A stretch of 64,000 bases of DNA from Caulobacter sp. SL161. GTDB lineage: Bacteria; Pseudomonadota; Alphaproteobacteria; Caulobacterales; Caulobacteraceae. The notes under the pieces are model-generated. The model worked only from the letters and a program-made list of their open reading frames with translations, was not told where the DNA came from and made no database searches. Location of the stretch: contig NZ_JAPPRA010000001.1 of assembly GCF_026672375.1 (NCBI RefSeq), positions 1,116,001 to 1,180,000 of the forward strand, in the 5' to 3' direction. This document shows, one piece after another, positions 2,944 through 32,480 of this stretch (position 1 is the stretch's first letter; each line of letters begins with the position of its first letter). Made by a program: the position numbers and the translations under genes.

Positions 2944-2984
2944 GGACCTGGCGTTGCTGAGTGTGACCTTAAGTGGCCTGACCA

Positions 2985-2999
2985 ATTATAACGAGTTAT
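2985..2999 (-). promoter_or_regulatory. Candidate promoter -10 and operator dyad upstream of manD
   Basis: Reading leftward, TATAAT occurs at 2990-2985 and overlaps a dyad ATAAC-TC-GTTAT (2988-2999). It lies about 45 bases before the manD start. There is no good -35 at 17 bases. An AT-rich dyad over a -10 box is what a repressor site for a sugar-acid gene would look like, but the regulator is unknown. Confidence 0.35.
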
Positions 3000-3066
3000 C
3001 TGACAAGTTTCTAGGGGGCTTGCGGCGGCCCGGCGCGGCGTTCGCAGCGACCGGGCCATCGCGCCC

Positions 3067-7590: not shown

Positions 7591-7627
7591 GCTCGTGGTC
7601 CTTTGGCAAGATGCGCGTCAGCGCCGT

Positions 7628-8368
7628 TCAGGTTGCGTCGTTCAGTTCGGCGACGAAGTCGTAGGCGTCGCCCCGATAGTAGGAATGCGAGATTTCGACG
7701 GCCCGCCCGTCCCGCAGGTAGCCGCGTCGCTCGACCAGAAGCCCGGCGTCCTTCGGCTTCACGCCCAGCAGCGAGGCGTGCTCTCGCGAGATCAGCACGC
7801 CGCGCAGGCGCTGCAAGGCGCGTGTGGGTCGGTGGCCCGTTGCGGCCATGGCCTCGTAGAGGGAGTCCTTGACGGCGTCGGCCGAGGGCAGGGCGAAGCC
7901 GGCGATGGTCGTATACTCGACCGCCATCGGCGCGCCGTCGGCCAGGCGAATGCGGTGAAAGCGATAGACCGGCGTGTTGGGCGAGACGCCCAGCATCAAG
8001 GCCTCTTCAGGGGTCACCGCGCCCTCGGCGCGGGTGATCCACTCGCTGGCGGGCGCACGGCCGCGTGAGCGCATGTCCTCGGTGAAGCAGGTCAGCTTCG
8101 AAAAGTTCTTCTCGACCCGGGCGGCCACGAAAGTGCCCGCGCCCTGGCGACGGGTCAGCAGGCCTTCGCTGACTAGGCCCTCAAGCGCCTTGCGGACCGT
8201 GATCCGCGATACGGCGAAGTCCTCGGCCATGTCGCGTTCCGGCGGAAGGGCGTCGTCGGGCGCAAGCACCTTGACTTCGATCGCCTCGCGCAGCGCGCGC
8301 TGCAGTTGCAGGTATAGAGGGGCGGGCACCGCGCCGTGGGCGAAGCCTATGCGCTTGGAAAGAGACAC
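7628..8368 (-). CDS. nagR: GntR/HutC-family regulator of the nag locus
   Basis: A winged-helix GntR repressor with a UTRA ligand domain. The HTH lies in PPERDMAEDFAVSRITVRKA and GLLTRRQGAGTFVA, and the UTRA domain runs through to the HSYYRGDAYDFVAEL end. I prefer the GTG at 8368, giving 246 residues beginning VSLSKRIGFAHG. An AGGAG lies about 10 bases upstream, and the length matches the NagR/YvoA family. An in-frame ATG at 8533 would add 55 residues of unusual composition. It is first in the operon with nagB-II, nagA and GH92 and divergent from the PTS genes, so it probably binds the 8369-8618 region. Ligands of relatives are GlcN-6-P or GlcNAc-6-P. Confidence 0.88.
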   Translation of the reverse strand: MSLSKRIGFAHGAVPAPLYLQLQRALREAIEVKVLAPDDALPPERDMAEDFAVSRITVRKALEGLVSEGLLTRRQGAGTFVAARVEKNFSKLTCFTEDMRSRGRAPASEWITRAEGAVTPEEALMLGVSPNTPVYRFHRIRLADGAPMAVEYTTIAGFALPSADAVKDSLYEAMAATGHRPTRALQRLRGVLISREHASLLGVKPKDAGLLVERRGYLRDGRAVEISHSYYRGDAYDFVAELNDAT

Positions 8369-8524
8369 GTCGCGCCGACTCCTGCGTTCGGGGGCTTCCG
8401 AAAGGTGGCTTCGCGGGATGCCAATGTGAGACCAATCGACCATCGGTAGATCAAGACGGCTGGCCTCGAAGCCCCGCGAACATATGCCGTTATAGCAGCA
8501 AATTCGCGGGCCATGAAAGGGTGT

Positions 8525-8564
8525 CCTTGCCAAATTGCAAAAGTGGCCTTGCCAAATGGTATTA
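8525..8564. promoter_or_regulatory. Direct repeats and candidate operator in the nag intergenic region
   Basis: CCTTGCCAAAT occurs twice, at 8525-8535 and 8547-8557, 22 bases apart and so on the same face of the helix. The second copy runs into AATGGTATTA (8555-8564). The region lies between divergent nagR and the PTS genes. AATGGTATTA is repeated at 13005-13014 ahead of the TonB receptor. These are candidate binding sites for NagR or another activator. Confidence 0.45.
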
Positions 8565-8618
8565 AAATGGAATGTAGTGCGTCCCGCCGGTTGGACGCTG
8601 GCGGAAAGGGGGATTCAG

Positions 8619-11156: not shown

Positions 11157-12901
11157 GGTCTCCGCTCGAGATCCTGCAGCCGCTGGGCCGGGCCCTGATG
11201 CTGCCGATCGCGGTGCTGCCGGTGGCGGCGCTGCTCCTGCGCATCGGCCAGCCGGACCTGCTGGGCGCGCCGGCGCTCGCGACCATGACCCACGGGGTGT
11301 CGCTGACGGTGGCCAACACCTTCGGCGCGGCCGGCGGGGCGATCTTCGCCAGCCTTGGCCTGATCTTCGCCATCGGCGTGGCGGTGGGCCTGGCCCGCGA
11401 GAACCACGGCGCGGCCGGCCTGGCGGGCGTGGTCTGCTATGTCATCGCCACCAAGGGGGTGGAGGCGCTGCTGGTCGCCCCGCCCGAGGTGGCGGCCAAG
11501 GCGGTCGAGGGAGCCAAGGATCTCGCCATAGCCGCCTGGAAGGCCAAGGAGATCGGCAAGCTGTCGATCCCGGTGGGCATCCTCTCGGGCGTGATCAGCG
11601 GCGCGCTCTACAACCGCTACAGCACCATCCAGCTGCCCGAGTACCTGGCCTTCTTCGGCGGTCGGCGGTTCGTGCCGATCGTGGCGGGCCTGGCCGGCGT
11701 CGTGCTGGCGCTCTTGTTCGGCGCGTTCTGGAGCACGCTGGAGGCCGGCGTTGACGGCCTCAGCGGGCTGGTCACGGCCTCCGGGAACCTGGGCCTGGTC
11801 GTCTACGGCCTTCTGAACCGCCTGCTGATCGTCACGGGCCTGCACCACATCCTCAACAATGTGGTCTGGTTCATCCTGGGCGACTTCAACGGGGTCACCG
11901 GCGACCTCAACCGGTTCGCGGCCGGGGACAAGACCGCCGGGGCGTTCATGAGCGGGTTCTTCCCGGTGATGATGTTCGGCCTGCCGGCCGCGTGCCTGGC
12001 CATGCTGCACACCGCGCGGCCCGAGCGTCGCAAGGCGGTGGCGGGGATGCTGGGCTCGCTGGCCCTGACCTCGTTCCTGACCGGCGTGACCGAGCCGATC
12101 GAGTTTACGTTCATGTTCCTGGCGCCGGTGCTGTTCGCCATCCACGCGCTGCTGACGGGCCTGTCGATGGCCCTGATGAACATGCTGGACGTCAAGCTGG
12201 GCTTTGGGTTCTCGGCGGGTCTGTTCGACTATGTGCTGAACTTCAACAAGGCCACGCGCCCGCTGCTGCTGATCCCGGTGGGGCTGGTCTATGGCGCGCT
12301 CTATTACGGGGTCTTCCGGTTCGCGATCGTGCGCTTTGACCTGAAGACCCCCGGCCGCGAGGACGAGGCGCCGCCCTCCGCCCAGGCGGTGACCACCGGC
12401 GGCGGGCGCGGGGCCGACATGCTGGCGGCGCTGGGCGGCGCGGCCAATCTGGTCAGCGTCGATGCGTGCACCACCCGTCTGCGGCTGATCGTGGTCGACC
12501 AGGGGCTGGTCAACGACCCGGCCCTCAAGGCGCTGGGCGCCCGGGGCGTCGTCCGGCCCTCCGACAAGGCCCTGCAGGTGGTGCTGGGTCCCATCGCCGA
12601 CACGGTCGCCGGCGAGATCCGGCACGCCATCAGCGCTCCGCCGGCGCCGATCACCGCGCCGGCCCCCGACGTCTCCCAGGCGGCCAAGGCCCTCCTGGCC
12701 GCCCTCGGCGGCGCCGACAACCTCCGCGACCTCTCCGCCCACGCCAGCCGACTGCGCGTCGTCCTCAACGACCCCGAACGCGTCGACCAAGCCGCCCTTC
12801 ACACCGCAGGCGTGCGCGGCTTTGCCGCCGTCGCGCCCGGCGCCGTCCACATCATCATCGGCCCACACGCCGAGCGGATCGCGGAGGTGCTTCGACCCTA
12901 G
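11153..12901 (+). CDS. nagE: PTS N-acetylglucosamine transporter NagE-like, EIIC-EIIB-EIIB'
   Basis: A 582-residue permease importing and phosphorylating GlcNAc. EIIC (about 1-390) starts MRSPLEILQPLGRALMLPIA, has multiple hydrophobic helices, and carries the substrate-site motif LTGVTEPIEFTFMFLAPVLF. The first EIIB (about 420-500) has the phospho-cysteine in DACTTRLR (Cys439). A proline-rich linker leads to a second EIIB-like domain (about 512-582), where the matching stretch is SAHASRLR. His530 replaces the cysteine, so this domain should not carry phosphate on Cys. EIIA is absent here and supplied by the overlapping upstream fusion. Unlike E. coli NagE (EIICBA), the C-terminal module is a duplicated, altered EIIB. 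Confidence 0.93.
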   Translation: MRSPLEILQPLGRALMLPIAVLPVAALLLRIGQPDLLGAPALATMTHGVSLTVANTFGAAGGAIFASLGLIFAIGVAVGLARENHGAAGLAGVVCYVIATKGVEALLVAPPEVAAKAVEGAKDLAIAAWKAKEIGKLSIPVGILSGVISGALYNRYSTIQLPEYLAFFGGRRFVPIVAGLAGVVLALLFGAFWSTLEAGVDGLSGLVTASGNLGLVVYGLLNRLLIVTGLHHILNNVVWFILGDFNGVTGDLNRFAAGDKTAGAFMSGFFPVMMFGLPAACLAMLHTARPERRKAVAGMLGSLALTSFLTGVTEPIEFTFMFLAPVLFAIHALLTGLSMALMNMLDVKLGFGFSAGLFDYVLNFNKATRPLLLIPVGLVYGALYYGVFRFAIVRFDLKTPGREDEAPPSAQAVTTGGGRGADMLAALGGAANLVSVDACTTRLRLIVVDQGLVNDPALKALGARGVVRPSDKALQVVLGPIADTVAGEIRHAISAPPAPITAPAPDVSQAAKALLAALGGADNLRDLSAHASRLRVVLNDPERVDQAALHTAGVRGFAAVAPGAVHIIIGPHAERIAEVLRP

Positions 12902-13311
12902 GATCAGCGCGCCGCAGCCCATCACGCGAGCCTCTGCGCCGCACGCGCGCGCAGGTCGCAAGCGCTGGACTTCAGGCTCCGGATGACTCTTAAGGAGGCA
13001 TCACAATGGTATTATCCGAACGGGCGCTGATCGGCGCTTGTAGAGCGGATAAGTATCTGAATAAAAAATATAAAATGGAGGAAAGGATCGGCTCTCCGCT
13101 TGAGCCGAAGTCAGGTGGCGCCCAATGTCTGGTCGCCTCTTAAAAAGTGAAAAAAATAAGTGGCTTAAGGCTTTGCGACGACAACGTCGCAGCCCTTATC
13201 GTTCGGCCAAGAGTTCTGAAAAAGGTACTCGAATGGTCTGCATCATGCTTGCAATGCGCGACGTCGCCGCAGTCCGTCTTCGCGCCGCTTAGTCAAGGGG
13301 GAATACAAAAG
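12902..13311. other. Long AT-rich leader upstream of the TonB receptor
   Basis: A 410-base gap, unusually AT-rich for this genome at 13055-13165. It holds a candidate small ORF (13006-13143) and a hairpin TGCGACG-ACAA-CGTCGCA (13174-13191). The receptor's Shine-Dalgarno AAGGGGG is near 13295. The length and secondary structure would suit post-transcriptional control of the receptor, but no known riboswitch class is recognised. Confidence 0.5.
13006..13143 (+). CDS. Candidate 45-residue small ORF before the TonB receptor
   Basis: An ATG preceded by a near-ideal Shine-Dalgarno (AAGGAGG, 8 bases upstream) opens a 45-codon frame starting MVLSERALIGACRADKYLNK and ending QCLVAS with TAA. It has no signal peptide or known motif. 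It may be a leader peptide or a chance frame; the ribosome site is the only positive evidence. The preceding gene, nagE, ends 104 bases upstream. Confidence 0.33.
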   Translation: MVLSERALIGACRADKYLNKKYKMEERIGSPLEPKSGGAQCLVAS

Positions 13312-15987
13312 ATGACCAATACCAAGACCACTGCGACCGCTGGTCGCCGCAAGGCTTTCGTGATCGCGCTGTTGAGCGGCGCCTGCTTCGCCGAGGCCGC
13401 GCTCGCCCAGTCGACGCCGGCGCCGGCCGCGGACCAGGCCGCCGTTGACGAAGTGATCGTCACGGCCTTCCGCAAGAGCTTGGCGACCGCCCTGGAAGTG
13501 AAGCGCAAGGACGTCCGCGTCTCCGACGGCATCTCGTCGGAAGACATCGGCAAGTTCCCGTCGGAAAACATCGCGGAAGCCATCCAGCGCATTCCGGGCG
13601 TCCAGATCTCGGCCATCAACGGCCGCGGCTCGACGATCAGCATCCGGGGTCTGGGCCCGCAGTACGCCCTGACCACCGTGAACGGTCAGGCCTTCAAGAG
13701 CTCGAACTTCACCGACGGCTTCCGCTACGACGTCATTCAGACCGAGCTGGCGTCCGGCATCCAGGTCTACAAGTCGCCGACGGCCGACATGGACGCAGGC
13801 GGCCTCGCCGGCACGGTGAACATCGACACCGTCCATCCCTTCGACGTGAAGGGCCGCCAGATCATCGTGGCGGGCAAGCTGCAGCAGCAGGAACTCATCG
13901 GCGGCAACCCGACCGGTAAGTACGGCCTGACCTATGTCGATCACTTCCTGGACGGCAAGCTGGGTGTCTTCCTGGGCGGCGGCTATCAGGAGCTGAAGGA
14001 CCGCGGCGACTATCTGTGGATGGACCGCTGGACCGTCAGCAACAACGTCTACACCCCGGCCCGCCTGCGCTATCGCCGCATCGACCGCGAAACCAAGCGC
14101 AGCATGATCAACGGCGCGGTCCAGTGGAAGCCGACTGACCACCTGCAGATGGACCTCATCGGCACCTACGCCGAGGACAAGACCACCCAGAACATTCACC
14201 AGCAGGTCTTCCTGTTCACCACGCCTTCGGCCTCGAACGTCGTGCCGATCACGGTGGCGAACGGCACCTCCACCAAGGTGCAGGTGAACAACTTCCGGCT
14301 GGAGAACAACCAACAGTACGAGAACCGTCCGCAGTCGACCAGCGCCCTGACGACGAAGCTCCACTACACCGGCCTCGAAAAATGGGACTTCAAGGCCGTC
14401 GCGCACTATTCGCGCGGCAACGCCAAGCATAACGAAGAAGCTGCGGTTCTGGGGATCAACATCCCGAGCGCCACGGTGGATATCGCCGATCCGAAGAACG
14501 TCATCTTCACGACGTCTACGGCGCTGACGAACACCGCGCAGTACGCCCCCACCACCCTGATCCGGAACACCTATCCGACCGGCGCCTTCCGCACGGTCGG
14601 CTCGCACGAGAGCGCCGCGCAGTTCGACGCCAAGCGTTATCTCGACTGGGGCATCCTGGAGTCGGTGCAGGTCGGCGCCAAGACGCGCAGCGAGGTGCTC
14701 AAGCGCTACGTGATCCGCAAGGACAACCAGGTTGTCCCGGCGTCCTTCTCGCCGACCATGGCCAACAGCGGCATCGCGGTGACCAACTTCCTTGACGGCC
14801 AGATGACCCTGCCGGACGCCTGGGTGTCGCCGAACCTCGACGCCTATCGGGAAGCGCTCAAGGCTCAGGGCATTTCGGTGTACGAGGGCTTCGACCCGCT
14901 GGGCAGCTATCGCGTCGAGCGCGACCTGACCTCGGTCTATGCGATGGCCAACCTGCGCGGGGAAGTGCTGTCGAAGACGTTCCGCGGCAATATCGGCGTG
15001 CGTAACGAAAGCACCGATCAGACGATCAAGGGCTATGTCGGCGGTTCGGCCAATCCTCAGAACACCGAGGTCCGGCTGGTGGCGGGCAACTACACCGCCA
15101 AGAAGTCGTACGACAACCTGCTGCCGTCGGCCAATCTGAGCGTCGATCTGACCGACAACCTGCTGCTGCGCGTGGCCGCCGCCAAGGTGCTGGTGCGTCC
15201 GATCATCGACTCCAGCAACCAGCTGGCCCGGACGATGACCAGCGCCACCGACACGACGGGCCGCCGCATCTTCACGATCTCGTCGGGCCAGGGCAACCTC
15301 AACCCGATGACCGCCAACCAGCTCGATCTGACGCTGGAGTGGTACTATGGCCAGGGCAATGGTCTGAGCGCCGGCTACTTCTCCAAGAAGGTCAAGAACG
15401 GCGTCTTCAGCCAGCTCACCTGCCCCACGAGCTATGAGTCCGTCGCGCTGTCGCGGGACTCCAGCGGCGTCTGCGTCGCGGCCAACGGTGACAACTACAT
15501 GATCACCGAAAGCTTCAACGACTCGCGCGTCGTCGACATCCATGGCTACGAAGTGAACTGGCAGCAGTCGCTCGACGCCTGGCTGCCGATCGAAGGCTTT
15601 GGCCTGATCGCCAACTACACCCACGTCACCCCGGCCAAGTCGACCACCGGCTTCCGTCTGGCCAACCTGTCGGAGCACACCGCCAACGGCACCGTCTACT
15701 GGGAAAACCAGAAGTTCAGCGCCCGTCTGTCGGCCAACTACCGCAGCGCCTATGACCAGACTTCGGTGGAAAGCTTCTTCGCCGGTCCGCTGGGTCACAC
15801 GATCAAGGCGCGCACTCAGCTGGATCTGAACCTGGGTTACAACTTCAATGAGCGTCTGAGCTTCGCCTTCGCGGCGATGAACATCAACAACGCCCAGGAA
15901 GAGGCCTACCTGATCAACGCCAGCCGTTGGCAGGAGACCGCGGTCACCGGTCCCAGCTACTTCCTGTCGTTCCAATACAAGATGTAA
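13312..15987 (+). CDS. TonB-dependent receptor, likely GlcNAc/chito- or glycan-oligosaccharide uptake
   Basis: An 891-residue outer-membrane receptor of the large Xanthomonas/Caulobacter type. The signal peptide covers roughly 14-34 (KAFVIALLSGACFAEAALAQ). The TonB box is VDEVIVTAFRKSL, and the plug has IGKFPSENIAEAIQRIPGVQ and INGRGSTISIRGLGPQYAL. The barrel ends in an aromatic strand, SYFLSFQYKM. The start at 13312 has an AAGGGGG ribosome site; upstream in-frame codons from 13147 give no signal peptide. Its place right after nagE and before GH89 suggests it imports GlcNAc-containing oligosaccharides into the periplasm. The substrate is inferred from neighbours only. Confidence 0.93.
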   Translation: MTNTKTTATAGRRKAFVIALLSGACFAEAALAQSTPAPAADQAAVDEVIVTAFRKSLATALEVKRKDVRVSDGISSEDIGKFPSENIAEAIQRIPGVQISAINGRGSTISIRGLGPQYALTTVNGQAFKSSNFTDGFRYDVIQTELASGIQVYKSPTADMDAGGLAGTVNIDTVHPFDVKGRQIIVAGKLQQQELIGGNPTGKYGLTYVDHFLDGKLGVFLGGGYQELKDRGDYLWMDRWTVSNNVYTPARLRYRRIDRETKRSMINGAVQWKPTDHLQMDLIGTYAEDKTTQNIHQQVFLFTTPSASNVVPITVANGTSTKVQVNNFRLENNQQYENRPQSTSALTTKLHYTGLEKWDFKAVAHYSRGNAKHNEEAAVLGINIPSATVDIADPKNVIFTTSTALTNTAQYAPTTLIRNTYPTGAFRTVGSHESAAQFDAKRYLDWGILESVQVGAKTRSEVLKRYVIRKDNQVVPASFSPTMANSGIAVTNFLDGQMTLPDAWVSPNLDAYREALKAQGISVYEGFDPLGSYRVERDLTSVYAMANLRGEVLSKTFRGNIGVRNESTDQTIKGYVGGSANPQNTEVRLVAGNYTAKKSYDNLLPSANLSVDLTDNLLLRVAAAKVLVRPIIDSSNQLARTMTSATDTTGRRIFTISSGQGNLNPMTANQLDLTLEWYYGQGNGLSAGYFSKKVKNGVFSQLTCPTSYESVALSRDSSGVCVAANGDNYMITESFNDSRVVDIHGYEVNWQQSLDAWLPIEGFGLIANYTHVTPAKSTTGFRLANLSEHTANGTVYWENQKFSARLSANYRSAYDQTSVESFFAGPLGHTIKARTQLDLNLGYNFNERLSFAFAAMNINNAQEEAYLINASRWQETAVTGPSYFLSFQYKM

Positions 15988-23482: not shown

Positions 23483-25486
23483 TCAGAGCACCAGATCGGC
23501 GGCGGTCTCCAGCGGCACGAACACAGGCTCGTCCTGGGCGATCGCTTCCGATCCCGCCTTGGTGGCGGCCAGGGGATCGTAGTTGCGCAGATCGTGGAAG
23601 TTCATGCCGGTGGCGGCCTCCAGATCCCGGATCGCCACCTGGAAGGTGCGATAGGCGCCCAGGCGGAAGCCCTCCAACGCCTCGCTGCGCTGACGGTCCT
23701 CCAGCAACTTTCGGATCAGGTGCCCCTGGCTCAGCACATAGGCCGTGGCGTGCAGGGTGTCTTGGCCATCCTCGGTCTTTGCGGTCATCACCGCGACCTT
23801 CCAGAATTCGAGCGGAACGCGGACATCGCCCTCCTCGGGCAGATACTCGTAGTCGCCGTTCAGGATCGGCCCCGTGAAGACGCAGGCCTTGAAACCCTCG
23901 GTCCGGCTGTTGTCCAGGATGTAGTTCTCAAGACCCTGCCAGAGGCTCTTGCCCTGGTTCAGCAGCGCGTGCTGCGGCGCGGCGTTGGTGTAGTGGAAGG
24001 TGTCGAAGTTGGCCTCGATCGCATCGTCGCCCCAGTTGGGATCCTCGCGACGGACCATGTGGCCGCGATCGATGGCCTGATCGCCATAGTGCTTGGCGGT
24101 GTACTGGCAGGCCGGGTCGATGCGCGCGTCCACGAACCACTTGTCTTCGCCGCGCTTGATGCGGACAGCCCGCTTGCCGTCGATATTGACCGCTGTGGCG
24201 GCCGGCAGCTTCAGGTCCTGCGAGAACAGCACGCCAAAGTGAGTGTAGCGCAGCTCGTGAGGGCGGCCGGGCAGCGCGTCGACCGGCTTGGCCAGCCCTG
24301 CGGCGATCTCGGGCGCCAGGGTCGGCCAGGGGACGGGCGGCGTCGTCTCGCCCAGGAAGCCGGGGACATAGCCGTTGCGATCCTTCAGGTCGTCGGCCGT
24401 GTGCAGGCCGTCCTTGGCTTCGACAAAGGTCTCCTGCAACACCGCGCCGGCCACCGTCGTGCGCGAGCCGAACACCAGGCGACGCAGGGTGGCGGCCGAA
24501 ACGGCGCTATTGGCGATCCCATATTGGCCGGCGAAGTGCAGACCCACGGCCACGCGGCGCTCGAGGCTGAGCAGCACCGAGCCGGAGTTGCCGCCCAGCG
24601 AGGTGCAATCGTGGCTGATGACGCCGCCCGAGTCCGCAGCGCGGGTCACACGCCCGGGCGCGAACCGCTTCACGTCGTAGAGGCCTCGGAAGTACCGCTC
24701 CATCGCCGTCACGTCGTTGCGCGTATCGTAGGCGGGATAGCCGATTAGAGCCACCAGCTCGTCCAGGCCGGCCTCCTCGTCGGCCAGGATGGGGATGCTG
24801 TCGGGCCAGATCCAGGCGGCGTTGAGCGGACGCTTGACGCGCAGCAGCGCGACATCGGCCCCGGTGTCGTCGGCCAGGTACTCGACGGCCGTGGCCGAGG
24901 CGTTGCGCGCATCGGTGACCCGGGCGTCGACCTCCTCGTTGAAGTCGATGCTCGCGCCATAGCGAGCGCCGCTGTAGGGCGAGCGCAGGAACACGCCCCG
25001 GCCGTCGGCGCTGCGCTTGGCGACCAGCTTGGCGACGTGGCGGTTGGTGACGACCAGGGCGTCATCGGCGCCGCTGTCCACGACCCAGCCCGTTCCGCCC
25101 CAGGCCATCTCATGGTTCACGAACTCGATCCGGCCCACCGAGGCGAGGGCGGGTTCGACGGCCTTGATCTGGCCGGTGATGGTGATGGGAAACTCTTCCA
25201 GCAGCGGCGGCTCGATGACGACCGCATCGTTGCGCACGATCAGCGGCGGTCGGCCCGTCAGCCGGATGATCGCCTCCAGCGCCATGGGGTTCACGCCGAC
25301 GCTTTCGAGCTTGCCGGGGCCGGCGTCCAAAGCGCGGGCCAGGGTCTCGGCGTCGAGAACAGCCGAGCGCAGGCCGAGCGCTCGCACGCTTTCCCCGCCA
25401 TCCCTGGCCAGGCGTTCGGCGGCCTTGCCCAGACGCGGCAGCAGACTTTCCAGCCGGCTGCGGCTCTCTTCCATCTTGTCGCTCAT
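23483..25486 (-). CDS. Trypsin-like serine protease fused to DNA/RNA non-specific endonuclease
   Basis: A 667-residue protein with no signal peptide. After a helical start (1-60) comes a trypsin-like domain (about 105-350). Its triad is His150 (VVTNRHVAKL), Asp211 (TGADVALLRV) and Ser301 (SLGGNSGSVL). Residues about 405-650 form an NUC1-type nuclease with the DRGH motif (AIDRGHMVRREDPNWG, His476), the Asn in YTNAAPQH (501) and LNQGKSLWQGLENYI. Such nucleases cut DNA and RNA with Mg2+. The ATG overlaps the STAND gene stop (ATGA), making it the last gene of the operon. The protease could activate or regulate the nuclease; that is inference. Lack of a signal peptide points to action inside the cell. 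Confidence 0.88.
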   Translation of the reverse strand: MSDKMEESRSRLESLLPRLGKAAERLARDGGESVRALGLRSAVLDAETLARALDAGPGKLESVGVNPMALEAIIRLTGRPPLIVRNDAVVIEPPLLEEFPITITGQIKAVEPALASVGRIEFVNHEMAWGGTGWVVDSGADDALVVTNRHVAKLVAKRSADGRGVFLRSPYSGARYGASIDFNEEVDARVTDARNASATAVEYLADDTGADVALLRVKRPLNAAWIWPDSIPILADEEAGLDELVALIGYPAYDTRNDVTAMERYFRGLYDVKRFAPGRVTRAADSGGVISHDCTSLGGNSGSVLLSLERRVAVGLHFAGQYGIANSAVSAATLRRLVFGSRTTVAGAVLQETFVEAKDGLHTADDLKDRNGYVPGFLGETTPPVPWPTLAPEIAAGLAKPVDALPGRPHELRYTHFGVLFSQDLKLPAATAVNIDGKRAVRIKRGEDKWFVDARIDPACQYTAKHYGDQAIDRGHMVRREDPNWGDDAIEANFDTFHYTNAAPQHALLNQGKSLWQGLENYILDNSRTEGFKACVFTGPILNGDYEYLPEEGDVRVPLEFWKVAVMTAKTEDGQDTLHATAYVLSQGHLIRKLLEDRQRSEALEGFRLGAYRTFQVAIRDLEAATGMNFHDLRNYDPLAATKAGSEAIAQDEPVFVPLETAADLVL

Positions 25487-28400
25487 GATCGAAGCATCCC
25501 TTCGGGTTCGATAGCCAGGATCGCCAGGGGGGGGACGAAGGCGGCGGGGATCCAGCGCCGCAGGAATTGCCAAGCCGCGCGCGAGGCCGCCTCGCGCGGC
25601 GCCGCCTCGGGCTGTTTCGCCAACTCGGCTCGCACCGCGTCGAGCTTGGCTGACCGGAGCACCCGCGCGACGCCGGCGTCGTCACCGGCCCAGCCGACCA
25701 GCTGCGCGCGCGCCGCGTCGATGGGCGCAGGGGCTTCGAACAGGGTCGCCAGACGGTTTTCGATCACCACATCCAGGCGCGTCGGCGCGCCGCGCCAGCC
25801 GGGGGAACGCCGCGCGTAGCGCCAGCGGCCGGCGGCGGCGGCGCGCCAGCGCTCGGCGCTGCGACCGATCAGGCGCAGGTCCGGATCGCGCAGCAGCAGG
25901 CCGGCCGCCGAAAGCCATTCGGCGGTGAAGCCCAGCGCCGACAGGGCGCTTGCCGGATTGGCGCCGTCGAGACGCCCGGACGCGGCCTCGGGCAGCGCCG
26001 CCAGTTGATGTCGCAGCAGCCGCAAGAGCCCGCCGCCCCGGTCGCGCGGCAGCAGGCCTTCGGCAAGATCCCCGTAGGGCGAGAGGATGGCCAGGGTCAT
26101 GGCGTCGTCCGGGCGGGACGGGGCGGCGAGGGAGGATCCGCCGCCCCCGGCGATGCGCTGGCGTCGCTCGTGCGCGGTGGCCAGCGCACGGTTCAGGCCT
26201 TCCTGGGGCGCATCCGGCGTCCACATCGCCAGCACCGCCGCAGGCGGATTGGCGCGGTCGCCGAAGAGGCGTTCGGGATCCAGCGCGAACGCCAGCGCGC
26301 CAAAGCCCAGATGGTTTCTGGAGGAGCGGATCAACCGGGCCGCGCGCGCGGGCCGATCCTCGCCGTCTTGCCGGAACCAGCCATGCAGATCGGCGAAGTT
26401 GAACTCGGCCTGCATTTCGAGGCGGACCAGGGTCGCTTCGGGCCAGGTGTCGAAAAGCGCGTGGTCCCAGGGCAAGGTCCAGGCGCGCTCGGCCGCCAGG
26501 CGCCGCGCCTCGGTCCAGCGACCGGTGCGCCACAGCAGGGTCAGGGCCACGTCGGCGGTCGGGCTGGTCGGATCCAGGGCGGCGGGGCGCAAGACGCGCT
26601 CATAGAAATGGCTCGCCTCGGCCAAGTCGCCCTTGCTGATCAGCATGCGCAGTTCGTTGGCCGCAGCGGGCGAGACTTCGCCGGAGGGGAGGGGCGCGTC
26701 GCCGCGCCCCTCATAGCTGCGCTCGCCCCGCGCCCGCAGCAGAGCGTCGCGGGCCGCCTCGGGGAGCTCTTCGAGATCGGCGGACTGGAAGGCGACCCCC
26801 GCCGCCAGGTTCATCCCTTTCAGCGCGTCCGGTCCCGCCCAACGCGTCGCCTGCAGGCGGTGGTAGAGGCTCTCGGCGCCCGCCCACGGCTCGGGCCGTT
26901 CGGCGAACCAGCGCGCCGCGCGGCGGTGCAACGCCCCAGCGCGGCGCGTGTGTTCATCATAGAGCTTGCCGGCCAGCCGCCGCCGAAGGTCGGCCTGGGG
27001 CGTGAGCCAGCCCTCCGTCTCTCCGGCGATCAGCCAGGTCTGGTCCTTGAGCTCGGTCCACAGCGCCGCAGCCGCGCCGGGGCTGAGGCGTTCGCCAAGC
27101 ACGACCGGCGCCATCACCGCGCCCAGCAACTCGCTGTTGAGGCGGCGAAACAGGGGGATGAAGCGCGCCAGCTTGGCGTGGCGCCCACCCAGGCGCGCTT
27201 CCAGGCTGCGATAGAGGGTGATGGTCGCGCCGCCCTTGCCGGTGAGGCCGGCTTGGCCCTCATCGCGGGCGAGCGTGGCCAACAGGCGGAGCTGCAGCGG
27301 ATCACCCTCGGCCAGGTCGATGACCTGGGTCCACAAGGCGGGCGGGACGTCGGCGGCGCTCAGCAGCCTTTCCGCCTCAGCGTTAGTCAGGCGATCCAGG
27401 TCCAGGGTTTCGGCCACCCGGTCAGCCACCGGCTCCAGCGCCCGCCCTCGGCCGGCGGCGACCACGACCAGCGGAACAAGAACCGCCCGCGCCAGCTGGT
27501 CCAGCCAGTCGAACAATTGGCGAGGATGGGTTTCGCCTCGCCCGCGCAGCACCTCCAGGGTGTCCAGAACCATGATCAGCCGGCGCCCGGCGCTTTGCAG
27601 CTGGACCGCCAGCGCCTGGATCAGCGCATAGGGTATCCCGCTGCGGCCGCCGCCCTTCAGCTGGACCTCCTGGGTGGTGATCGCCTCCAGGCGCGCCTGG
27701 CGCAGATCGGCCGCAGCGCCGGGCAACTGGCTGGCGACCTGCCGCGCGACCTCCACGCTCAGGCCCAGCTGGTCCAGGACATCGAGACTGGCGCGATCAA
27801 AGTCCAGCCGCACCACGACGGTCTCGACGCCTTGTTGCGCCACCTGTCGCAAGACGTGCTCCAGCAGCGTCGATTTGCCGATCGCAGGCAGGCCGCTGAC
27901 ATACAGCGCCCGGACGCCGATAGGGTCCTGGTCCGGATTGCGGATCCAGTCGGTCAGGGTTTCCACCGCCCGCTCGCGGCCCTGGAAGCCGTCCGCCAGC
28001 AGCAGCTCGCCCCGGCGCGCCTGGTCGGTGCGGTTCAGGGCGGCCTGGAGACGCGCCAGCAGGGCGTCTGCAGGCGCCAAGACCCCGCTCCATTCCAGGG
28101 CGGTCGCCAGCCGTCGGAGTTCGGGTCCGGCGGCCGCCTCTTGCGCCTCGATCCTTTCAAGCCTCCGCGCCATGGCCTTGGGCGAGAACGCTCCCTTGCC
28201 CAGCAGCGCATCCAGCAGGTCGGCGGTGGCCGGGTCCGCGCCCAGATCGCGCCGCCAGTCGATGGCCTTCCGCAGGCTCCCCTCATCGTTCAGGCGCTTG
28301 AGATCCCAGGCGCGTTCGCTGGCGCGCAGCAGCCAGTCGCCGGTCGCGGAGACGTCGCAGACCGCGTCCAGGGCCGAGGAAACCGTGATCGCCAGGTCGA

Positions 28401-28563
28401 TCGGCTCGACCGCGCCGGCGGCGCGCAACGCCTCGACCGGGGCGAACGGTCCCGATAGCGCGGCGTAGCGCCGGGCCAGCGTGATGAAGCCCTCAGCTTC
28501 GGCCTTCATCCCCGTCAATGACGGGGCGCTGACGTCCAGATCGGGCAGGGGCGTTTCGCTCAT
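25483..28563 (-). CDS. STAND-like P-loop NTPase, large signalling ATPase
   Basis: A 1026-residue protein. Residues 1-190 form a helical N-terminal region with no recognised domain. Walker A is in YVSGLPAIGKSTLLEHV (224-232) and Walker B in RRLIMVLDTLEVLRG (about 328-335). A helical ARC/winged-helix-like part follows (LDRLTNAEAERLLSAADVPP, LAEGDPLQLRLLATLA). The C-terminal 450 residues are alanine- and arginine-rich helical repeats, like TPR-type sensors. Proteins of this build act as nucleotide-dependent switches that assemble when a trigger is sensed. ATGA overlaps on both sides place it between two protease genes. No close named family is recognised. NACHT or AP-ATPase assignment would need a profile search. 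Confidence 0.8.
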   Translation of the reverse strand: MSETPLPDLDVSAPSLTGMKAEAEGFITLARRYAALSGPFAPVEALRAAGAVEPIDLAITVSSALDAVCDVSATGDWLLRASERAWDLKRLNDEGSLRKAIDWRRDLGADPATADLLDALLGKGAFSPKAMARRLERIEAQEAAAGPELRRLATALEWSGVLAPADALLARLQAALNRTDQARRGELLLADGFQGRERAVETLTDWIRNPDQDPIGVRALYVSGLPAIGKSTLLEHVLRQVAQQGVETVVVRLDFDRASLDVLDQLGLSVEVARQVASQLPGAAADLRQARLEAITTQEVQLKGGGRSGIPYALIQALAVQLQSAGRRLIMVLDTLEVLRGRGETHPRQLFDWLDQLARAVLVPLVVVAAGRGRALEPVADRVAETLDLDRLTNAEAERLLSAADVPPALWTQVIDLAEGDPLQLRLLATLARDEGQAGLTGKGGATITLYRSLEARLGGRHAKLARFIPLFRRLNSELLGAVMAPVVLGERLSPGAAAALWTELKDQTWLIAGETEGWLTPQADLRRRLAGKLYDEHTRRAGALHRRAARWFAERPEPWAGAESLYHRLQATRWAGPDALKGMNLAAGVAFQSADLEELPEAARDALLRARGERSYEGRGDAPLPSGEVSPAAANELRMLISKGDLAEASHFYERVLRPAALDPTSPTADVALTLLWRTGRWTEARRLAAERAWTLPWDHALFDTWPEATLVRLEMQAEFNFADLHGWFRQDGEDRPARAARLIRSSRNHLGFGALAFALDPERLFGDRANPPAAVLAMWTPDAPQEGLNRALATAHERRQRIAGGGGSSLAAPSRPDDAMTLAILSPYGDLAEGLLPRDRGGGLLRLLRHQLAALPEAASGRLDGANPASALSALGFTAEWLSAAGLLLRDPDLRLIGRSAERWRAAAAGRWRYARRSPGWRGAPTRLDVVIENRLATLFEAPAPIDAARAQLVGWAGDDAGVARVLRSAKLDAVRAELAKQPEAAPREAASRAAWQFLRRWIPAAFVPPLAILAIEPEGMLRS

Positions 28564-30338
28564 CGACCCGCCTCCTGCGTGTTACGCCAATCGACCAGGC
28601 GCTCCGTCAGCCGGGCCGCGACCTCGACGCTGTGGGCGAGGTCGACATAGTCGTTCTGCGAGGGGATGCCGGCCAGCGCCGCATTGAGAATGAAGTCGAC
28701 CCCAGGATCGCCCAGCGCCAGTCCCAGCGCCTCGTCCGCGCGGAGGATCAGCGTCCTGACCTCCTGTCGCGAGAAGCGGCCGACATACTCGATGACCAGG
28801 CCCGGCGCGCCTGCGGCCGTGGCGGCCTCCGCATCGGAGAACTCGTCGCCGCCGGGTGTGCTGATGGTCTCGAAGCCCGCGATCACCAACCGCAGCGCGG
28901 GCTGTTTCAGGGCCGCGCTGACGAAGGCCTCGAAAGCCATCCGCTCGCTGTCGATCAATCCCGCCGCCGGGTTCTCGAAGAAGACCCACAAAAGCCGGTC
29001 GGGGCCGCTGGCCTGGATCGCCTGGTCCAGGGCCAGCGCCAGTCTCCGGGCCTGATCGCCCACCGCCGCCTCGGGCGTGGTGTCGCCGGCGCGCATGCCG
29101 AAGGGGACGTCCTCGGCGGGGAGTTGAAGGCCCGCGTCGAGGGCCTTCTGGCGGATCGCGCCCAGAAGGTCCTGTTGAGCCTGATCGAAGCCGATGCGGA
29201 TCAAGACGTGTCGCGACCGATCGCGGTCCAGCATCGTCTTCAGCAGCGTCGCTGAGAACGACAGGCCCGTCGTGCCGGCCGACGGGTTCATACGCAGCAC
29301 CCGCAGGCCCCGGACCCTCGCGCCGGGGCGCGAAGCCTCCGCCAGGCCCTCGAAGAAGAGGTCACGGCCAATCACCAACGGGCCCCGCAGATCATCGGTG
29401 AGCGACCACAGGAAGCTCGGCGCGATATCGGCCCGCACCTGGGTCACGAGCGGTTCGTGAAAGCGGGCCAGCGGGACCAGCCGGCGAGCGGGCGGCCAAC
29501 GTCCCTGGTGAATGCCGATCAGTTCGTAGCGGGTGTTGAGGCAGGCCGCGCCCGAGGAGCCGCCGGCGCTGTCGCTGTCGTGCTGGACGCGAGCCTGAAT
29601 GCCGTTGATGGGCGTCACATGGCCCATCCCCCAGCCTCTGGAGTGACCGTCCGGGAAGTCCAGCACGAACAGGCCGGCCCGTCTGCGCAGAGGGGGCGGC
29701 GCGTCCGGCACGCGCAGAAACTTGAAGCGCATGCCTTCGGGACGGCGGAGCTTCAGCAGAGCGACGTCATGCCGGTCGGCGAACGCCGCGTCATTGGCCG
29801 GAAAGTGGCTGGCGAACTCCTCGGACGTGCAGGGCGACAAATAGCGTTGCACGTCGCTGACGCTGTATCGGAAGCCGTCCGCCAGGATCACGCTGATCTT
29901 CTCGCGGACGGGATCCACCGTGTCGGGGCCTCCGCTCGCGATCACATGCCAAGCGGTGAGAACGAGGCTGGGCCCGATCAGGCAGCCCGACCCGCTGATG
30001 TGGTCGCCCCGCACGATGCGGCAGGCCGCCTTGCCGATACGCTCCAGGGCGCTGGGGTTCTGGATCCGCTGATCCTCGGGCGCGGCTTCGGGTTCCAGAA
30101 CCGGACCGCACGCGACTCCGCGCGCGGCGAGCGCCAGCGCATAGGCCTCCAGCAGTTGGCGCTTCTCGAGCTGCAAGGCCAGAACCCCTTCGACCGACAT
30201 GCCATGGTGTTGCGCCACGGGCTTGGCGGCCTCCAGGGTTACGGGCGCCTGATCGCCAAACTGGAGGGCCAGCAGCGCCTCTTCCGCGCGCACCGGGTCG
30301 GCCCGAATGGCGGCTTCGATGTCCTGTTTGCTGACCAT
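28560..30338 (-). CDS. Trypsin-like protease with degenerate P-loop C-terminal domain
   Basis: A 592-residue protein and first gene of the operon. Residues 1-75 are a helical domain (MVSKQDIEAAIRADPVRAEE) of the sort that acts as an adaptor. The trypsin-like domain (about 95-300) has His131 (VLTAWHVI), Asp191 (DRHDVALLKL) and Ser262 in GGSSGAACL. Residues about 320-592 look like a broken NTPase: MNPSAGTTGLSFSATLLKTM sits where a Walker A would be but has no GK[ST], and DRLLWVFFENPAAG resembles a Walker B strand. It has no signal peptide. The ATG at 30338 has a G-rich ribosome site. Its stop overlaps the STAND gene start by ATGA. Confidence 0.8.
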   Translation of the reverse strand: MVSKQDIEAAIRADPVRAEEALLALQFGDQAPVTLEAAKPVAQHHGMSVEGVLALQLEKRQLLEAYALALAARGVACGPVLEPEAAPEDQRIQNPSALERIGKAACRIVRGDHISGSGCLIGPSLVLTAWHVIASGGPDTVDPVREKISVILADGFRYSVSDVQRYLSPCTSEEFASHFPANDAAFADRHDVALLKLRRPEGMRFKFLRVPDAPPPLRRRAGLFVLDFPDGHSRGWGMGHVTPINGIQARVQHDSDSAGGSSGAACLNTRYELIGIHQGRWPPARRLVPLARFHEPLVTQVRADIAPSFLWSLTDDLRGPLVIGRDLFFEGLAEASRPGARVRGLRVLRMNPSAGTTGLSFSATLLKTMLDRDRSRHVLIRIGFDQAQQDLLGAIRQKALDAGLQLPAEDVPFGMRAGDTTPEAAVGDQARRLALALDQAIQASGPDRLLWVFFENPAAGLIDSERMAFEAFVSAALKQPALRLVIAGFETISTPGGDEFSDAEAATAAGAPGLVIEYVGRFSRQEVRTLILRADEALGLALGDPGVDFILNAALAGIPSQNDYVDLAHSVEVAARLTERLVDWRNTQEAGR

Positions 30339-30474
30339 CGCACCCCCCCCAAGTTCGAGATTGAGCTTTAAGTCTAGATGATCCAACTATGAATTGTTTG
30401 TGGCGGTCGGCGCGCGCGGGCCTGGCCAGATCAGCCCTCGGTAAGAACCGAAGCCCAGATCGAGGAGACAGGTG

Positions 30475-31032
30475 ATGCCGTTCGTACCCCTCAGTCCGTC
30501 GTCCGCAGGAGGCGAAGAAGCCCTTTCGCCCATGATGCCGCTGCCGCTGGTGGTCGCTGTGCTGGACAGCGAGGACGAGAAGGAGGGGCGGACCTGCGCG
30601 ATCGTGGCCTTTGGCTTTCGCTACATCCATCCCGCCTCGGGCGCGCAGGTCGATGTGCCGGAGGGCTATGTGACGGATTTCGCCTCGATCCCCGCCCCCG
30701 TGCGCGGCCTCTTCCCGCCGTTTGGCCGGCACGCCAAGGCCGCGGTGCTGCACGACTGGCTGTACCTGATCGGCGAGCCCGGACAGCGCGCCTTCGCCGA
30801 CCGCATCTTCCTCGACGCGATGGATGATCTGCGGGTCAGCCTGGTTCGGCGCTCGATCATGCACCGGGCCGTTCGCCTGGCGGGCGGTGGGGCCTACGCC
30901 AAGGAGGCGTCGACCTGGGCGCGCGCGTTCGGAAACTGGCGCACGGGGGACCGGCACACGCCGCCGTTCACAGCGGAGAGCCGCTATCAGGCCCATTGGC
31001 CGGTTCCGCCACGCCCGGATTTCCGGCCCTAG
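30475..31032 (+). CDS. DUF1353 family protein
   Basis: A 185-residue protein with the DUF1353 elements VPEGYVTDFASIPAPVRGLFPP and HAKAAVLHDWLYLIG. The family is common in phage genomes and has no settled function. It has no signal peptide or membrane segment, and the C-terminus is proline-rich (HWPVPPRPDFRP). The ATG at 30475 has AGGAG 9 bases upstream. It is divergent from the protease-STAND-nuclease operon across a 136-base gap and convergent with a cell-wall hydrolase-like gene. It may belong to the same island. Confidence 0.85.
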   Translation: MPFVPLSPSSAGGEEALSPMMPLPLVVAVLDSEDEKEGRTCAIVAFGFRYIHPASGAQVDVPEGYVTDFASIPAPVRGLFPPFGRHAKAAVLHDWLYLIGEPGQRAFADRIFLDAMDDLRVSLVRRSIMHRAVRLAGGGAYAKEASTWARAFGNWRTGDRHTPPFTAESRYQAHWPVPPRPDFRP

Positions 31033-31112: not shown

Positions 31113-32480
31113 TCACAGCGTTATGGTGATATCGCCGCTGTCGGCCAGGGCCTTGATCATCAGCGCCGCGCCGCACTGCTTGGAGATCGCCTCGGGATCG
31201 TAGACGTGATCGCGGACGAACTTGCCCTTCAGGTAGTGCGTCGAGAAGCTCCACAGATAGGGCGTGTTGATGCCCTGACGGCGCGATCCGAAGCCGTTGT
31301 AGCGCTCCAGGCGATACAGCGTGGCGGGAAGGCTCCAGTCCACAAGACCGGTCAGCTGTTGGCGGGTCAGGGCGTCGAGCGCGCTCTGCTCCCACGTGAA
31401 GGGCGGCGACCCTGTCGCGGGCCGTCCGGCGGGAACCCTGACCGTGCGCGCCGACAGCGGGTCGCCGTTGTGCAGATGGGTGGTGAAGTCGAAGCTGCCC
31501 TCCAGGGCGTGGATGGCGCCGATCACGAACCAGGGAATCTGCGTCTGCTGGGCCAGGGGCTCGTAGCGCGACTTGAACGCCAGCAACTTCTTGCGATGCC
31601 ACGCCACCTGGCCCGCCCATTCGGGGCGCGTCTGGCACGTCTGGAAGAGGCGGCGATACTCGTCGGCCAGCGCCTCGAGCGTGAAGGTCTCGGCCGCCGT
31701 CGGCGGAGTCTGGGGCTCCGGCGCAGGGCGGGTCAGGGTCAGATAGCGACTCAGCAGGATCGAGGCCTGGTCGGCCACCGCCTGATCGGGGCTATCCTTC
31801 AGGTCGGTCAGCCTTTGCAGCAACGGGGTCAGCTGGGTCAGCTGGTCTGCGGCGGCCGCGATCGCGGCGATCTCCACCTCGGGCCCGGCGCTGGTCAGCG
31901 CCACGGGCGGCGGCAGTGCGGTGACGCTGGAGAGCGCCCAGGGCCTTGGATCATCGTAGAGGGCCTTGATCGGCTGGACCGAGATATGGACGTGATGATC
32001 GTGCGGATTCTTGCCGCCATAGGGACGCCACGCCCAGGCCGCCTGGCCATCGCGCGGTTCGCTCGCACAGATCCGCCGGTTCCAGATGATGTACTTGATC
32101 CGGCTGTCGCGGCTGGCCCTGAGGGCCTCGGCGATCACGCCGGCGTCGCAGCCGGTCTGGGGGCTATGCGTGAAGTCGCGGGCGGTGACGATCCCCTTGC
32201 CGCCGTCCGTGACCCAGGGATTGTGGTCGCTGGCGCGCGTGCGATGCGCCGCGTCGCCGATGCCGCCGTCGCTGATGGTGTTGCGGTCGGGGGCCAGAGC
32301 GTTGATCCGCCGCCGCAGAACCTCGAGCGCCTCGGCCACCCGCCACGGCGGCGCGACGCCCTCCAGCCCCGCTGGCGCCAGAGACTCCTCCCCCACATCG
32401 GCCGACGCGGCGTCTGGATCGGCATGGACGTCTTCGCAGAGGTCGACCGCCTGGTGGATGGTGGCTTCGATGTCCGTCAT
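31113..32480 (-). CDS. Two-domain predicted peptidoglycan hydrolase (M15-like plus lysozyme-like)
   Basis: A 455-residue protein without signal peptide. The first domain (about 47-200) resembles phage or VanY-like zinc D,D-peptidases, with RASDHNPWV, a downstream DFTH and NPHDHHVHISV. A helical linker follows. The C-terminal domain (about 258-455) matches a lysozyme-like family with WFVIGAIHALEGSFDFTTHL, HNGDPLSARTVRVPAGRP, RLERYNGFGSRRQG and SKQCGAALMIKAL. Together this looks like an endolysin cutting both peptide and glycan strands. Domain names are from remembered motifs, not a search. Lacking an export signal, it would need a holin, lysis or another route to reach the wall. Confidence 0.7.
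   Translation of the reverse strand: MTDIEATIHQAVDLCEDVHADPDAASADVGEESLAPAGLEGVAPPWRVAEALEVLRRRINALAPDRNTISDGGIGDAAHRTRASDHNPWVTDGGKGIVTARDFTHSPQTGCDAGVIAEALRASRDSRIKYIIWNRRICASEPRDGQAAWAWRPYGGKNPHDHHVHISVQPIKALYDDPRPWALSSVTALPPPVALTSAGPEVEIAAIAAAADQLTQLTPLLQRLTDLKDSPDQAVADQASILLSRYLTLTRPAPEPQTPPTAAETFTLEALADEYRRLFQTCQTRPEWAGQVAWHRKKLLAFKSRYEPLAQQTQIPWFVIGAIHALEGSFDFTTHLHNGDPLSARTVRVPAGRPATGSPPFTWEQSALDALTRQQLTGLVDWSLPATLYRLERYNGFGSRRQGINTPYLWSFSTHYLKGKFVRDHVYDPEAISKQCGAALMIKALADSGDITITL

What the first reader, a model, noticed from the sequence alone, without database searches (positions are those of the whole stretch)
23483..30338. Protease - STAND NTPase - protease/nuclease operon: candidate undescribed conflict system
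Three genes joined by ATGA overlaps encode a trypsin-like protease, a 1026-residue P-loop switch protein and a second trypsin-like protease fused to an NUC1 endonuclease. None has a signal peptide. Known families: STAND NTPases with protease or nuclease effectors act in bacterial defence, and gasdermin operons pair proteases with ATPases. Here the executor would be a nuclease on a protease chain, which suggests a two-step proteolytic cascade that unleashes DNA/RNA cutting. The cascade is inference.
Basis: partly seen in the sequence, partly recalled or inferred. Interest (0 to 1): 0.88.

Follow-up and report, generated by a model that had tools for sequence, protein, structure and literature searches.

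The report
LypABC lysis switch of Caulobacter
The three genes are lypABC, a recently described immune-like protease switch that makes Caulobacter cells burst to release gene transfer agents; the system is already known, but a probable cell-wall-cutting enzyme encoded next door is an untested candidate for the missing lysis factor.

Summary
In detail: three overlapping genes encode a trypsin-like protease, a STAND/NLR-like ATPase and a trypsin-NUC1 nuclease fusion. "Undescribed" is wrong. The operon matches lypABC of Caulobacter crescentus (Banks et al. 2026, PMC13236601), a CARD-NLR-like system needed for lysis that releases gene transfer agents. The kind was predicted in 2020 as NucA-trypsin "System 3" (PMC7159879). 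So the nuclease is not the executor of that lysis, and Banks et al. call the lytic effector unknown. My survey adds a lead. The gene next but one to lypA (31113-32480, minus) encodes a probable peptidoglycan hydrolase without a Pfam match. Its lysozyme-like domain, found in 2 of 385 genomes of the class, lies within 1.3 kb of lypABC in 4 of 38 fetched loci (one the same species) and is fused to trypsin-NUC1 proteins in 8 of 120 listed homologues and on a Sinorhizobium plasmid. The link is inference: no fused protein was shown to sit beside lypAB, and the published Tn-seq text does not name the gene. Verdict: already known, with one testable lead.

The parts
28560..30338 (-). [quoted passage not shown]
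25483..28563 (-). lypB (P2, 1026 aa): STAND/NLR-like ATPase, Walker A K230, Walker B D334
   Evidence: ORF; AAA_16 and NPHP3_N; K230 and D334 61 of 61; 73 homologues at E<=0.001
23483..25486 (-). lypC (P3, 667 aa): trypsin-like peptidase (H150/D211/S301) fused to a NUC1/EndoG-type nuclease (DRGH, H476)
   Evidence: ORF; Pfam; conservation; model mean pLDDT 80.3 with a low-confidence linker 343-355; Foldseek matches to Spl/HtrA proteases and EXOG/EndoG
28560..28563 (-). ATGA overlap lypA/lypB
   Evidence: ORF coordinates
25483..25486 (-). ATGA overlap lypB/lypC
   Evidence: ORF coordinates
30339..30471 (.). divergent intergenic region between lypA and the DUF1353 gene; by position the lypABC promoter region (CdxB-repressed in C. 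crescentus according to PMC13236601)
   Evidence: sequence; CdxB; no site was mapped here
30472..31032 (+). DUF1353 gene, divergent neighbour of lypA; also beside lypA in L006, L007 and L008, and fused to the lysozyme-like domain in the neighbour gene of L013 (partner status is inference)
   Evidence: PF07087 3e-30
31113..32480 (-). probable peptidoglycan hydrolase gene, candidate lytic partner (inference): M15-like N-terminal part (31923-32447) and lysozyme-like domain LLD (31128-31670)
   Evidence: no Pfam match at E<=0.01; PHROG 32486 of unknown function over residues 50-180; LLD and N-part profile hits; fusion of LLD to trypsin-NUC1 proteins

Best explanation
The operon is lypABC, a CARD-NLR-like immune-type switch of Caulobacter vibrioides/crescentus whose third protein carries an endonuclease. 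[quoted passage not shown] On a trigger linked to gene-transfer-agent production they become active and, with the LypC peptidase, switch on cell lysis. The LypC nuclease is not needed for that lysis; its role is open (phage defence is a guess). The lysis executor is unknown in print. My inference is that a proteolytically controlled envelope-attacking enzyme does the killing, and that the neighbouring hydrolase is one candidate. Shown by others in C. crescentus: need for lypABC, for both peptidase serines and the Walker residues, and the LypA-LypB contact. Inferred: trigger, order of cleavage, executor.
For: Identity: PMC13236601 gives LypA with S262 and domains to residue 592, LypB K230, a 6.9-kb operon about 2.4 Mb from the GTA cluster, and complete operons in C. 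radicis and C. zeae. The window gives 592 aa, S262, K230, 6.9 kb, a GTA_TIM gene 2.3 Mb away, and C. zeae and C. radicis loci L007 and L008. P0194, labelled 'nuclease, putative [Caulobacter vibrioides CB15]', is 98% identical to P3. Function: lysis and mutant results from that paper. Unit: 32 of 38 loci with the same order and strand; pairwise distances of the three proteins correlate at r 0.92-0.95 over 32 loci (30 of the 38, plus the G019 locus and the window), permutation maximum 0.21. Fusions: STAND-trypsin-NUC1 in one chain in P0041, P0046, P0047, P0059 and P0063; trypsin-STAND in P0070 and P0071.
Against: The window strain is not shown to be the published strain, and no NA1000 protein was aligned directly. 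LypB Walker B is D335 in print and D334 here; LypC residues are offset by 5; lengths are 1027 and 662 in print, 1026 and 667 here. No phenotype was measured in this strain. The CARD fold of LypA residues 1-80 was not searched alone.
Confidence: 0.92

Rival explanations
1. Nuclease-executed abortive infection: activation of the proteases frees the LypC nuclease, which destroys DNA/RNA and kills an infected cell.
For: Nuclease residues are conserved (H476 110 of 110). Kaur et al. 2020 predicted a proteolytic cascade deploying NucA. A different nuclease (MBL fold) is activated by a trypsin-like protease in Hachiman and AVAST (PMC12799240). At least 3 of 38 loci lie beside known defence genes: Gabija L030, Hachiman L026, IetAS L019.
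Against: Nuclease-dead LypC still supports GTA-mediated lysis, and C. endophyticus LypC lacks the domain. Two of 38 loci have no LypC in the fetched stretch. Caulobacter lypABC is not in a defence island.
Confidence: 0.25
2. A peptidoglycan-hydrolase module is the lytic partner of LypABC. The neighbour gene 31113-32480 (with DUF1353 30472-31032) is held inactive in the cytoplasm and is switched on, directly or indirectly, by LypA/LypC proteolysis.
For: The lysozyme-like domain lies within 1.3 kb of lypABC in L006, L009, L013 and L017 (4 of 38 loci; DUF1353 in L006, L007, L008 and L013); only 24 of 38 loci have 5 kb or more on both sides. The domain is fused behind trypsin and NUC1 in 8 of the 120 listed LypC-type homologues and in S. 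meliloti L082, where the next gene carries the other half. In C. rhizosphaerae L081 the hydrolase ORF overlaps a trypsin gene two genes before a STAND-like ATPase gene, with DUF1353 beyond it. The domain is rare: 2 of 385 class genomes, one of them this genome.
Against: The parts of Banks et al. that I read name no such gene among the 41 Tn-seq hits, and the main text never uses the word peptidoglycan; the supplementary list was not readable. C. zeae (L007), C. radicis (L008) and G019 (L044) have lypABC without the domain in the fetched stretch. The L082 fusion has no lypA/lypB match within its 12.5 kb, and the context of the other 8 fusions was not seen. Copies without such a link exist: L089 among housekeeping genes, L092 with no lyp match, L087. 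Enzyme activity is inferred only; no PDB match.
Confidence: 0.25
3. Ordinary housekeeping or secreted protease operon with no conflict role.
For: Flanking genes on the lypC side look like carbohydrate and phosphatase genes (by eye).
Against: Patchy occurrence (LypB in 4 of 61 genomes searched, this one included), STAND ATPase, published lysis phenotype.
Confidence: 0.02

Closest known systems
LypABC of Caulobacter crescentus (PMC13236601)
   Same: Gene order, protein lengths within a few residues, catalytic residues, genus, distance to the GTA cluster
   Different: Window strain not shown to be NA1000; LypB one residue shorter, LypC five longer by the chosen starts
CARD-NLR anti-phage systems (Lysobacter, Azospirillum; known to me here only as described in PMC13236601)
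   Same: CARD-trypsin protein plus NLR-like ATPase plus exchangeable effector
   Different: No gasdermin; here a trypsin-NUC1 protein occupies the effector place and its nuclease is dispensable for GTA lysis
NucA-trypsin 'System 3' of Kaur et al. 2020 (PMC7159879)
   Same: Trypsin-NucA fusion, several trypsins per operon, STAND NTPase, mostly alphaproteobacteria, predicted proteolytic cascade
   Different: No EAD1 found in the window proteins; STAND and the first trypsin are separate genes here
Nuclease-protease pairs of Hachiman/AVAST/Lamassu (PMC12799240)
   Same: Trypsin-like protease paired with a nuclease; shown proteolytic activation of a pro-nuclease
   Different: That nuclease is an MBL-fold hydrolase, a separate gene; here NUC1/EndoG type fused to its own protease

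Membership tests
LypABC | Three-gene operon: CARD-trypsin-ATPase-like / NLR-like ATPase / trypsin-endonuclease | tested here: met
   compared (the CARD label is the paper's)
LypABC | Catalytic residues LypA S262, LypB K230, LypC Ser/His | tested here: met
   LypC offset of 5 residues, LypB Walker B offset of 1
LypABC | Host encodes a GTA cluster about 2.4 Mb away | tested here: met
   GTA_TIM PF13547 at C1:3454654, operon near C1:1.14 Mb; one GTA gene tested, not the cluster
LypABC | Required for GTA-mediated lysis | not testable with these tools
   shown in C. crescentus by Banks et al.
CARD-NLR systems | N-terminal CARD-fold domain on the protease protein | tested here: inconclusive
   Helical N-terminus in the model; no separate fold search of residues 1-80; called CARD-like in PMC13236601
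CARD-NLR systems | NLR-like STAND ATPase with Walker A and B | tested here: met
CARD-NLR systems | Exchangeable death effector | tested here: inconclusive
   LCAT-like gene and no LypC in L019 and L024; S8 genes directly upstream of lypA in 9 loci; patatin in L035; function not tested
CARD-NLR systems | Anti-phage activity | not testable with these tools
   Banks et al. neither show nor exclude it
NucA-trypsin System 3 | NucA-type nuclease plus trypsin-like peptidase as core | tested here: met
NucA-trypsin System 3 | STAND NTPase fused to trypsin and a Death-like domain (certain operons) | tested here: inconclusive
   Separate genes in the window; fused trypsin-STAND in P0070 and P0071; Death-like identity not tested
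NucA-trypsin System 3 | EAD1 on one trypsin (a subset of operons) | tested here: not met
   no EAD1 match listed for P1-P3 at E<=1; an optional feature
MBL nuclease-protease pairs (HamM type) | MBL-fold pro-nuclease gene | tested here: not met
   no such Pfam match in P1-P3; the nuclease is Endonuclease_NS

The most novel reading that the evidence does not exclude
A peptidoglycan-hydrolase module, the lysozyme-like/M15-like gene 31113-32480 and probably the DUF1353 gene 30472-31032, is a functional partner of LypABC and of trypsin-NUC1 systems in general: a cytoplasmic pro-lysin switched on by the immune-type proteases. It would be the missing, or one of several redundant, lysis executors of gene-transfer-agent release.
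Probability: 0.25. Interest if true: 0.75.

Novelty: already known. Interest (0 to 1): 0.4.

Why it matters
It shows that this striking operon is already explained as a CARD-NLR-like lysis switch, and that the obvious guess, nuclease as executor, is wrong in the one setting tested. What remains open in print is how LypABC bursts the cell. The recurrent genomic and fusion link between LypC-type proteins and a rare lysozyme-like domain makes that question directly testable with two gene deletions in a laboratory strain.

Tried and rejected
'Undescribed system': rejected after literature search. MBL pro-nuclease pair (PMC12799240): rejected, different nuclease. BapE of Caulobacter (recalled as a damage-induced endonuclease): search listing only, not pursued; this genome has one Endonuclease_NS match, and it is P3. 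PADLOC gives no specific system for P1-P3; best hits are LmuA to P1 (2.7e-7) and 'nacht' PDLC03010 to P3 (4.2e-19), none for P2.

DUF1353 as a phospholipase-like enzyme (my idea from an HD..Y motif, recalled): no support, no relevant PDB match, dropped. Lysozyme-like domain against PDB by profile: no match at E<=10; its enzyme type rests on fusions to Amidase_2, NlpC/P60, M15_3 and PG_binding_1 and the name 'peptidoglycan-binding protein' in a Bradyrhizobium phage. The M15-like reading of the N-terminal part rests on a recalled Zn-site pattern (H, D, HxH) seen in the alignment printed. The VIA search on LypA tests only the peptidase part; the CARD-like and C-terminal parts are barely tested. 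The class-wide LypB profile search gave 30 of 385 genomes, nearly all short P-loop matches; only this genome and G342 match over hundreds of positions, and G342 has a divergent system (L093). Defence-neighbour tallies (205 families matched, mad3 and mad8 most often with 6 of 127 each) have no control rate and were not resolved by gene; 10 genes from 7 loci were checked singly, 9 of them among the 127. Neighbour genes were called by crude scripts, so some are spurious; at most two per side were taken, 127 in all. A search for CARD-NLR with peptidoglycan-hydrolase terms listed 10 of 46 papers, none with the word CARD-NLR.
Full report
Observation. Pfam finds Trypsin_2 in P1, AAA_16/NPHP3_N in P2, and Trypsin_2 plus Endonuclease_NS in P3. 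Alignments were built from listed homologues after a length filter: P1 112 of 118 considered plus the window, P2 60 of 68 plus the window, P3 109 of 119 plus the window. The P1 triad is kept in 113 of 113, the P3 triad and nuclease histidine in 110 of 110, the P2 Walker lysine in 61 of 61. These look like working enzymes, not decayed copies. Models of P1 (mean pLDDT 87.3) and P3 (80.3) match solved HtrA/V8/Spl-type proteases, and P3 also EXOG/EndoG nucleases.

Unit. A genome-contig scan with the LypB alignment returned 38 loci; it works from two short peptide patterns, so it is not a census. In 32 of 38 the three genes lie in the same order on the same strand. In L010, L037, L039 and L041 a contig end cuts the operon. 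L019 and L024 have no P3 in the fetched stretch, with 9.8 and 10.0 kb downstream; LypC elsewhere in those genomes was not sought. In L016 P2 and P3 are one gene. Single-chain STAND-trypsin-NUC1 proteins (P0041, P0046, P0047, P0059, P0063) and trypsin-STAND proteins (P0070, P0071) also exist. Pairwise distances of the three proteins correlate at 0.946, 0.928 and 0.919 over 32 loci (30 of the 38, L018 and L034 left out as cut, plus L044 and the window), permutation maximum 0.21. The system is patchy: LypB in 4 of 61 genomes searched, this one included.

What it is. A literature search led to Banks et al. 2026, PMC13236601; I read its abstract and outline, sections 7, 9, 11 and 13, part 1 of section 68, and passages. 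They found lypABC (CCNA_03886, CCNA_00580, CCNA_00579) by Tn-seq in C. crescentus as a 6.9-kb operon about 2.4 Mb from the GTA cluster, required for GTA-mediated lysis and gene transfer. LypA ends at residue 592 and has catalytic S262; LypB has K230; LypC has S296, H471 and N505. The window operon gives 592 aa, S262, K230, and S301/H476/N510, a constant offset of 5. The genome has a GTA_TIM gene 2.3 Mb away, and C. zeae and C. radicis carry the operon as in the paper (L007, L008). A protein labelled C. vibrioides CB15 nuclease is 98% identical to P3. I did not align the NA1000 proteins themselves. It is the only paper of the library that holds the word LypABC.

Mechanism. From that paper: S262A in LypA, K230A and D335A in LypB and S296A in LypC fail to restore lysis; nuclease mutants H471A and N505A, alone or together, do restore it; [quoted passage not shown] overexpression of lypABC is toxic and needs all three proteins; CdxB represses the promoter; the lytic effector is unknown. 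So the two-protease switch is supported and the nuclease as executor is not. Kaur et al. 2020 (PMC7159879, section 32 and passages read) had already described NucA-trypsin systems with STAND partners, predicted a proteolytic cascade, and noted lysozyme- and papain-like peptidoglycan peptidases among EAD1-linked partners. Kaur et al. 2021 (PMC8195603, passages only) mention the NucA-trypsin system again. Tuck et al. 2025 (PMC12799240, outline and part 1 of the results read) showed proteolytic pro-nuclease activation for a different, MBL-fold nuclease.

Effector exchange. In L019 and L024, which lack LypC, a gene ends 3 bp before the lypA ORF; in L024 it matches LCAT/alpha-beta hydrolases, and two of the 127 neighbour genes match LCAT. 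S8 subtilisin genes sit directly upstream of lypA in 9 loci: 8 that form one BLAST cluster and L016; Pfam was checked singly for L018 and L016, and 9 of the 127 neighbours match S8. L035 has a patatin-like gene directly downstream of lypC. Banks et al. report phospholipases or endonucleases in place of gasdermin in other CARD-NLR systems, so this is expected. I recall, from no call, that DefenseFinder lists endonuclease, phospholipase and subtilase subtypes.

Defence context. Single PADLOC checks of 10 neighbour genes from 7 loci (9 of them among the 127) confirm Gabija beside L030, Hachiman beside L026 and IetAS beside L019, so at least 3 of 38 loci. I measured no background rate. In C. crescentus the authors see no defence island.

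New lead. The gene at 31113-32480 has no Pfam match at E<=0.01 and matches a PHROG of unknown function. Its C-terminal lysozyme-like domain (LLD) and N-terminal M15-like part recur beside lypABC: L006 (same species), L009 (same strand, 111 bp after lypC, shortened), L017 (convergent, 0.8 kb after lypC), and L013, where NlpC/P60, DUF1353 and LLD form one divergent gene 1.2 kb from lypA. That is 4 of 38 loci. DUF1353 is in L006, L007, L008 and L013, also 4 of 38; together 6 of 38. Only 24 of 38 loci have at least 5 kb on both sides, so these are lower bounds. Scanning all 313 fetched proteins, LLD was found in 8, all among the 120 listed LypC-type homologues (of 1229 found), and in all 8 behind trypsin and nuclease (P0245, P0246, P0247, P0251, P0262, P0265, P0271, P0282). 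On the S. meliloti plasmid L082 LLD is fused to trypsin-NUC1 and the next gene carries the M15-like part. Of 13 plasmid records with a relative I opened 8: L081 (trypsin, STAND-like ATPase just under the Pfam cut-off, DUF1353), L082, L083 (caspase-family gene 4.6 kb away), L084 (S8, patatin) and L085 (caspase, CHAT, DUF1353) have conflict-type neighbours; L086 and L087 do not; L088 has no annotation. LLD is rare: 2 of 385 class genomes including this one. The whole hydrolase matches 5 of 61 relatives, one of them partial and one a weak match with stops. DUF1353 is found in 24 of 61 genomes, mostly at other places; a copy beside lypA is in G000, G001 and G010, and one near the hydrolase operon in G007.

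Against the lead. C. zeae, C. radicis and G019 have lypABC without LLD in the fetched stretch. L082 has no lypA/lypB match in its 12.5 kb, and the contexts of the eight fusions were not seen, so the fusions tie LLD to LypC-type proteins rather than to LypABC as a whole. L089 is in a housekeeping context and L092 shows no lyp match. The parts of Banks et al. that I read name no such gene among their 41 Tn-seq hits, and the main text does not use the word peptidoglycan; their supplementary table was not readable. I rate the lead at 0.25.

Verdict.

Noticed in passing
window 30472-31032 (+): DUF1353 gene divergent from lypA. DUF1353 is found in 24 of 61 related genomes; copies beside lypA are in G000, G001 and G010, and one lies near the hydrolase-trypsin-STAND operon in G007. 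PHROGs calls its relatives tail assembly chaperone.
   Followed up: partly
L081 829-12745 (Caulobacter rhizosphaerae plasmid): Plasmid cluster with an EAD1-trypsin gene, an unknown gene and an nSTAND1-like gene, then hydrolase-trypsin-unknown-STAND-like ATPase in a row and a DUF1353 gene.
   Followed up: partly
L019 6816-8186 and L024 6813-8186: LCAT-like alpha/beta hydrolase genes directly upstream of lypA in two loci without LypC in the fetched stretch, a probable effector swap.
   Followed up: partly
L007 3539-7902 (Caulobacter zeae): A second trypsin gene followed by two unknown ORFs lies just upstream of the DUF1353 gene and lypABC.
   Followed up: no
L093 (G342) 2527-14740: A divergent relative with five ORFs matching protease or STAND profiles in a row, including a trypsin-NUC1 protein of 792 aa.
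   Followed up: no
L021 15172-20313: A 1713-aa P-loop protein directly downstream of the operon with a weak match to PADLOC candidate PDC-M54A.
   Followed up: no
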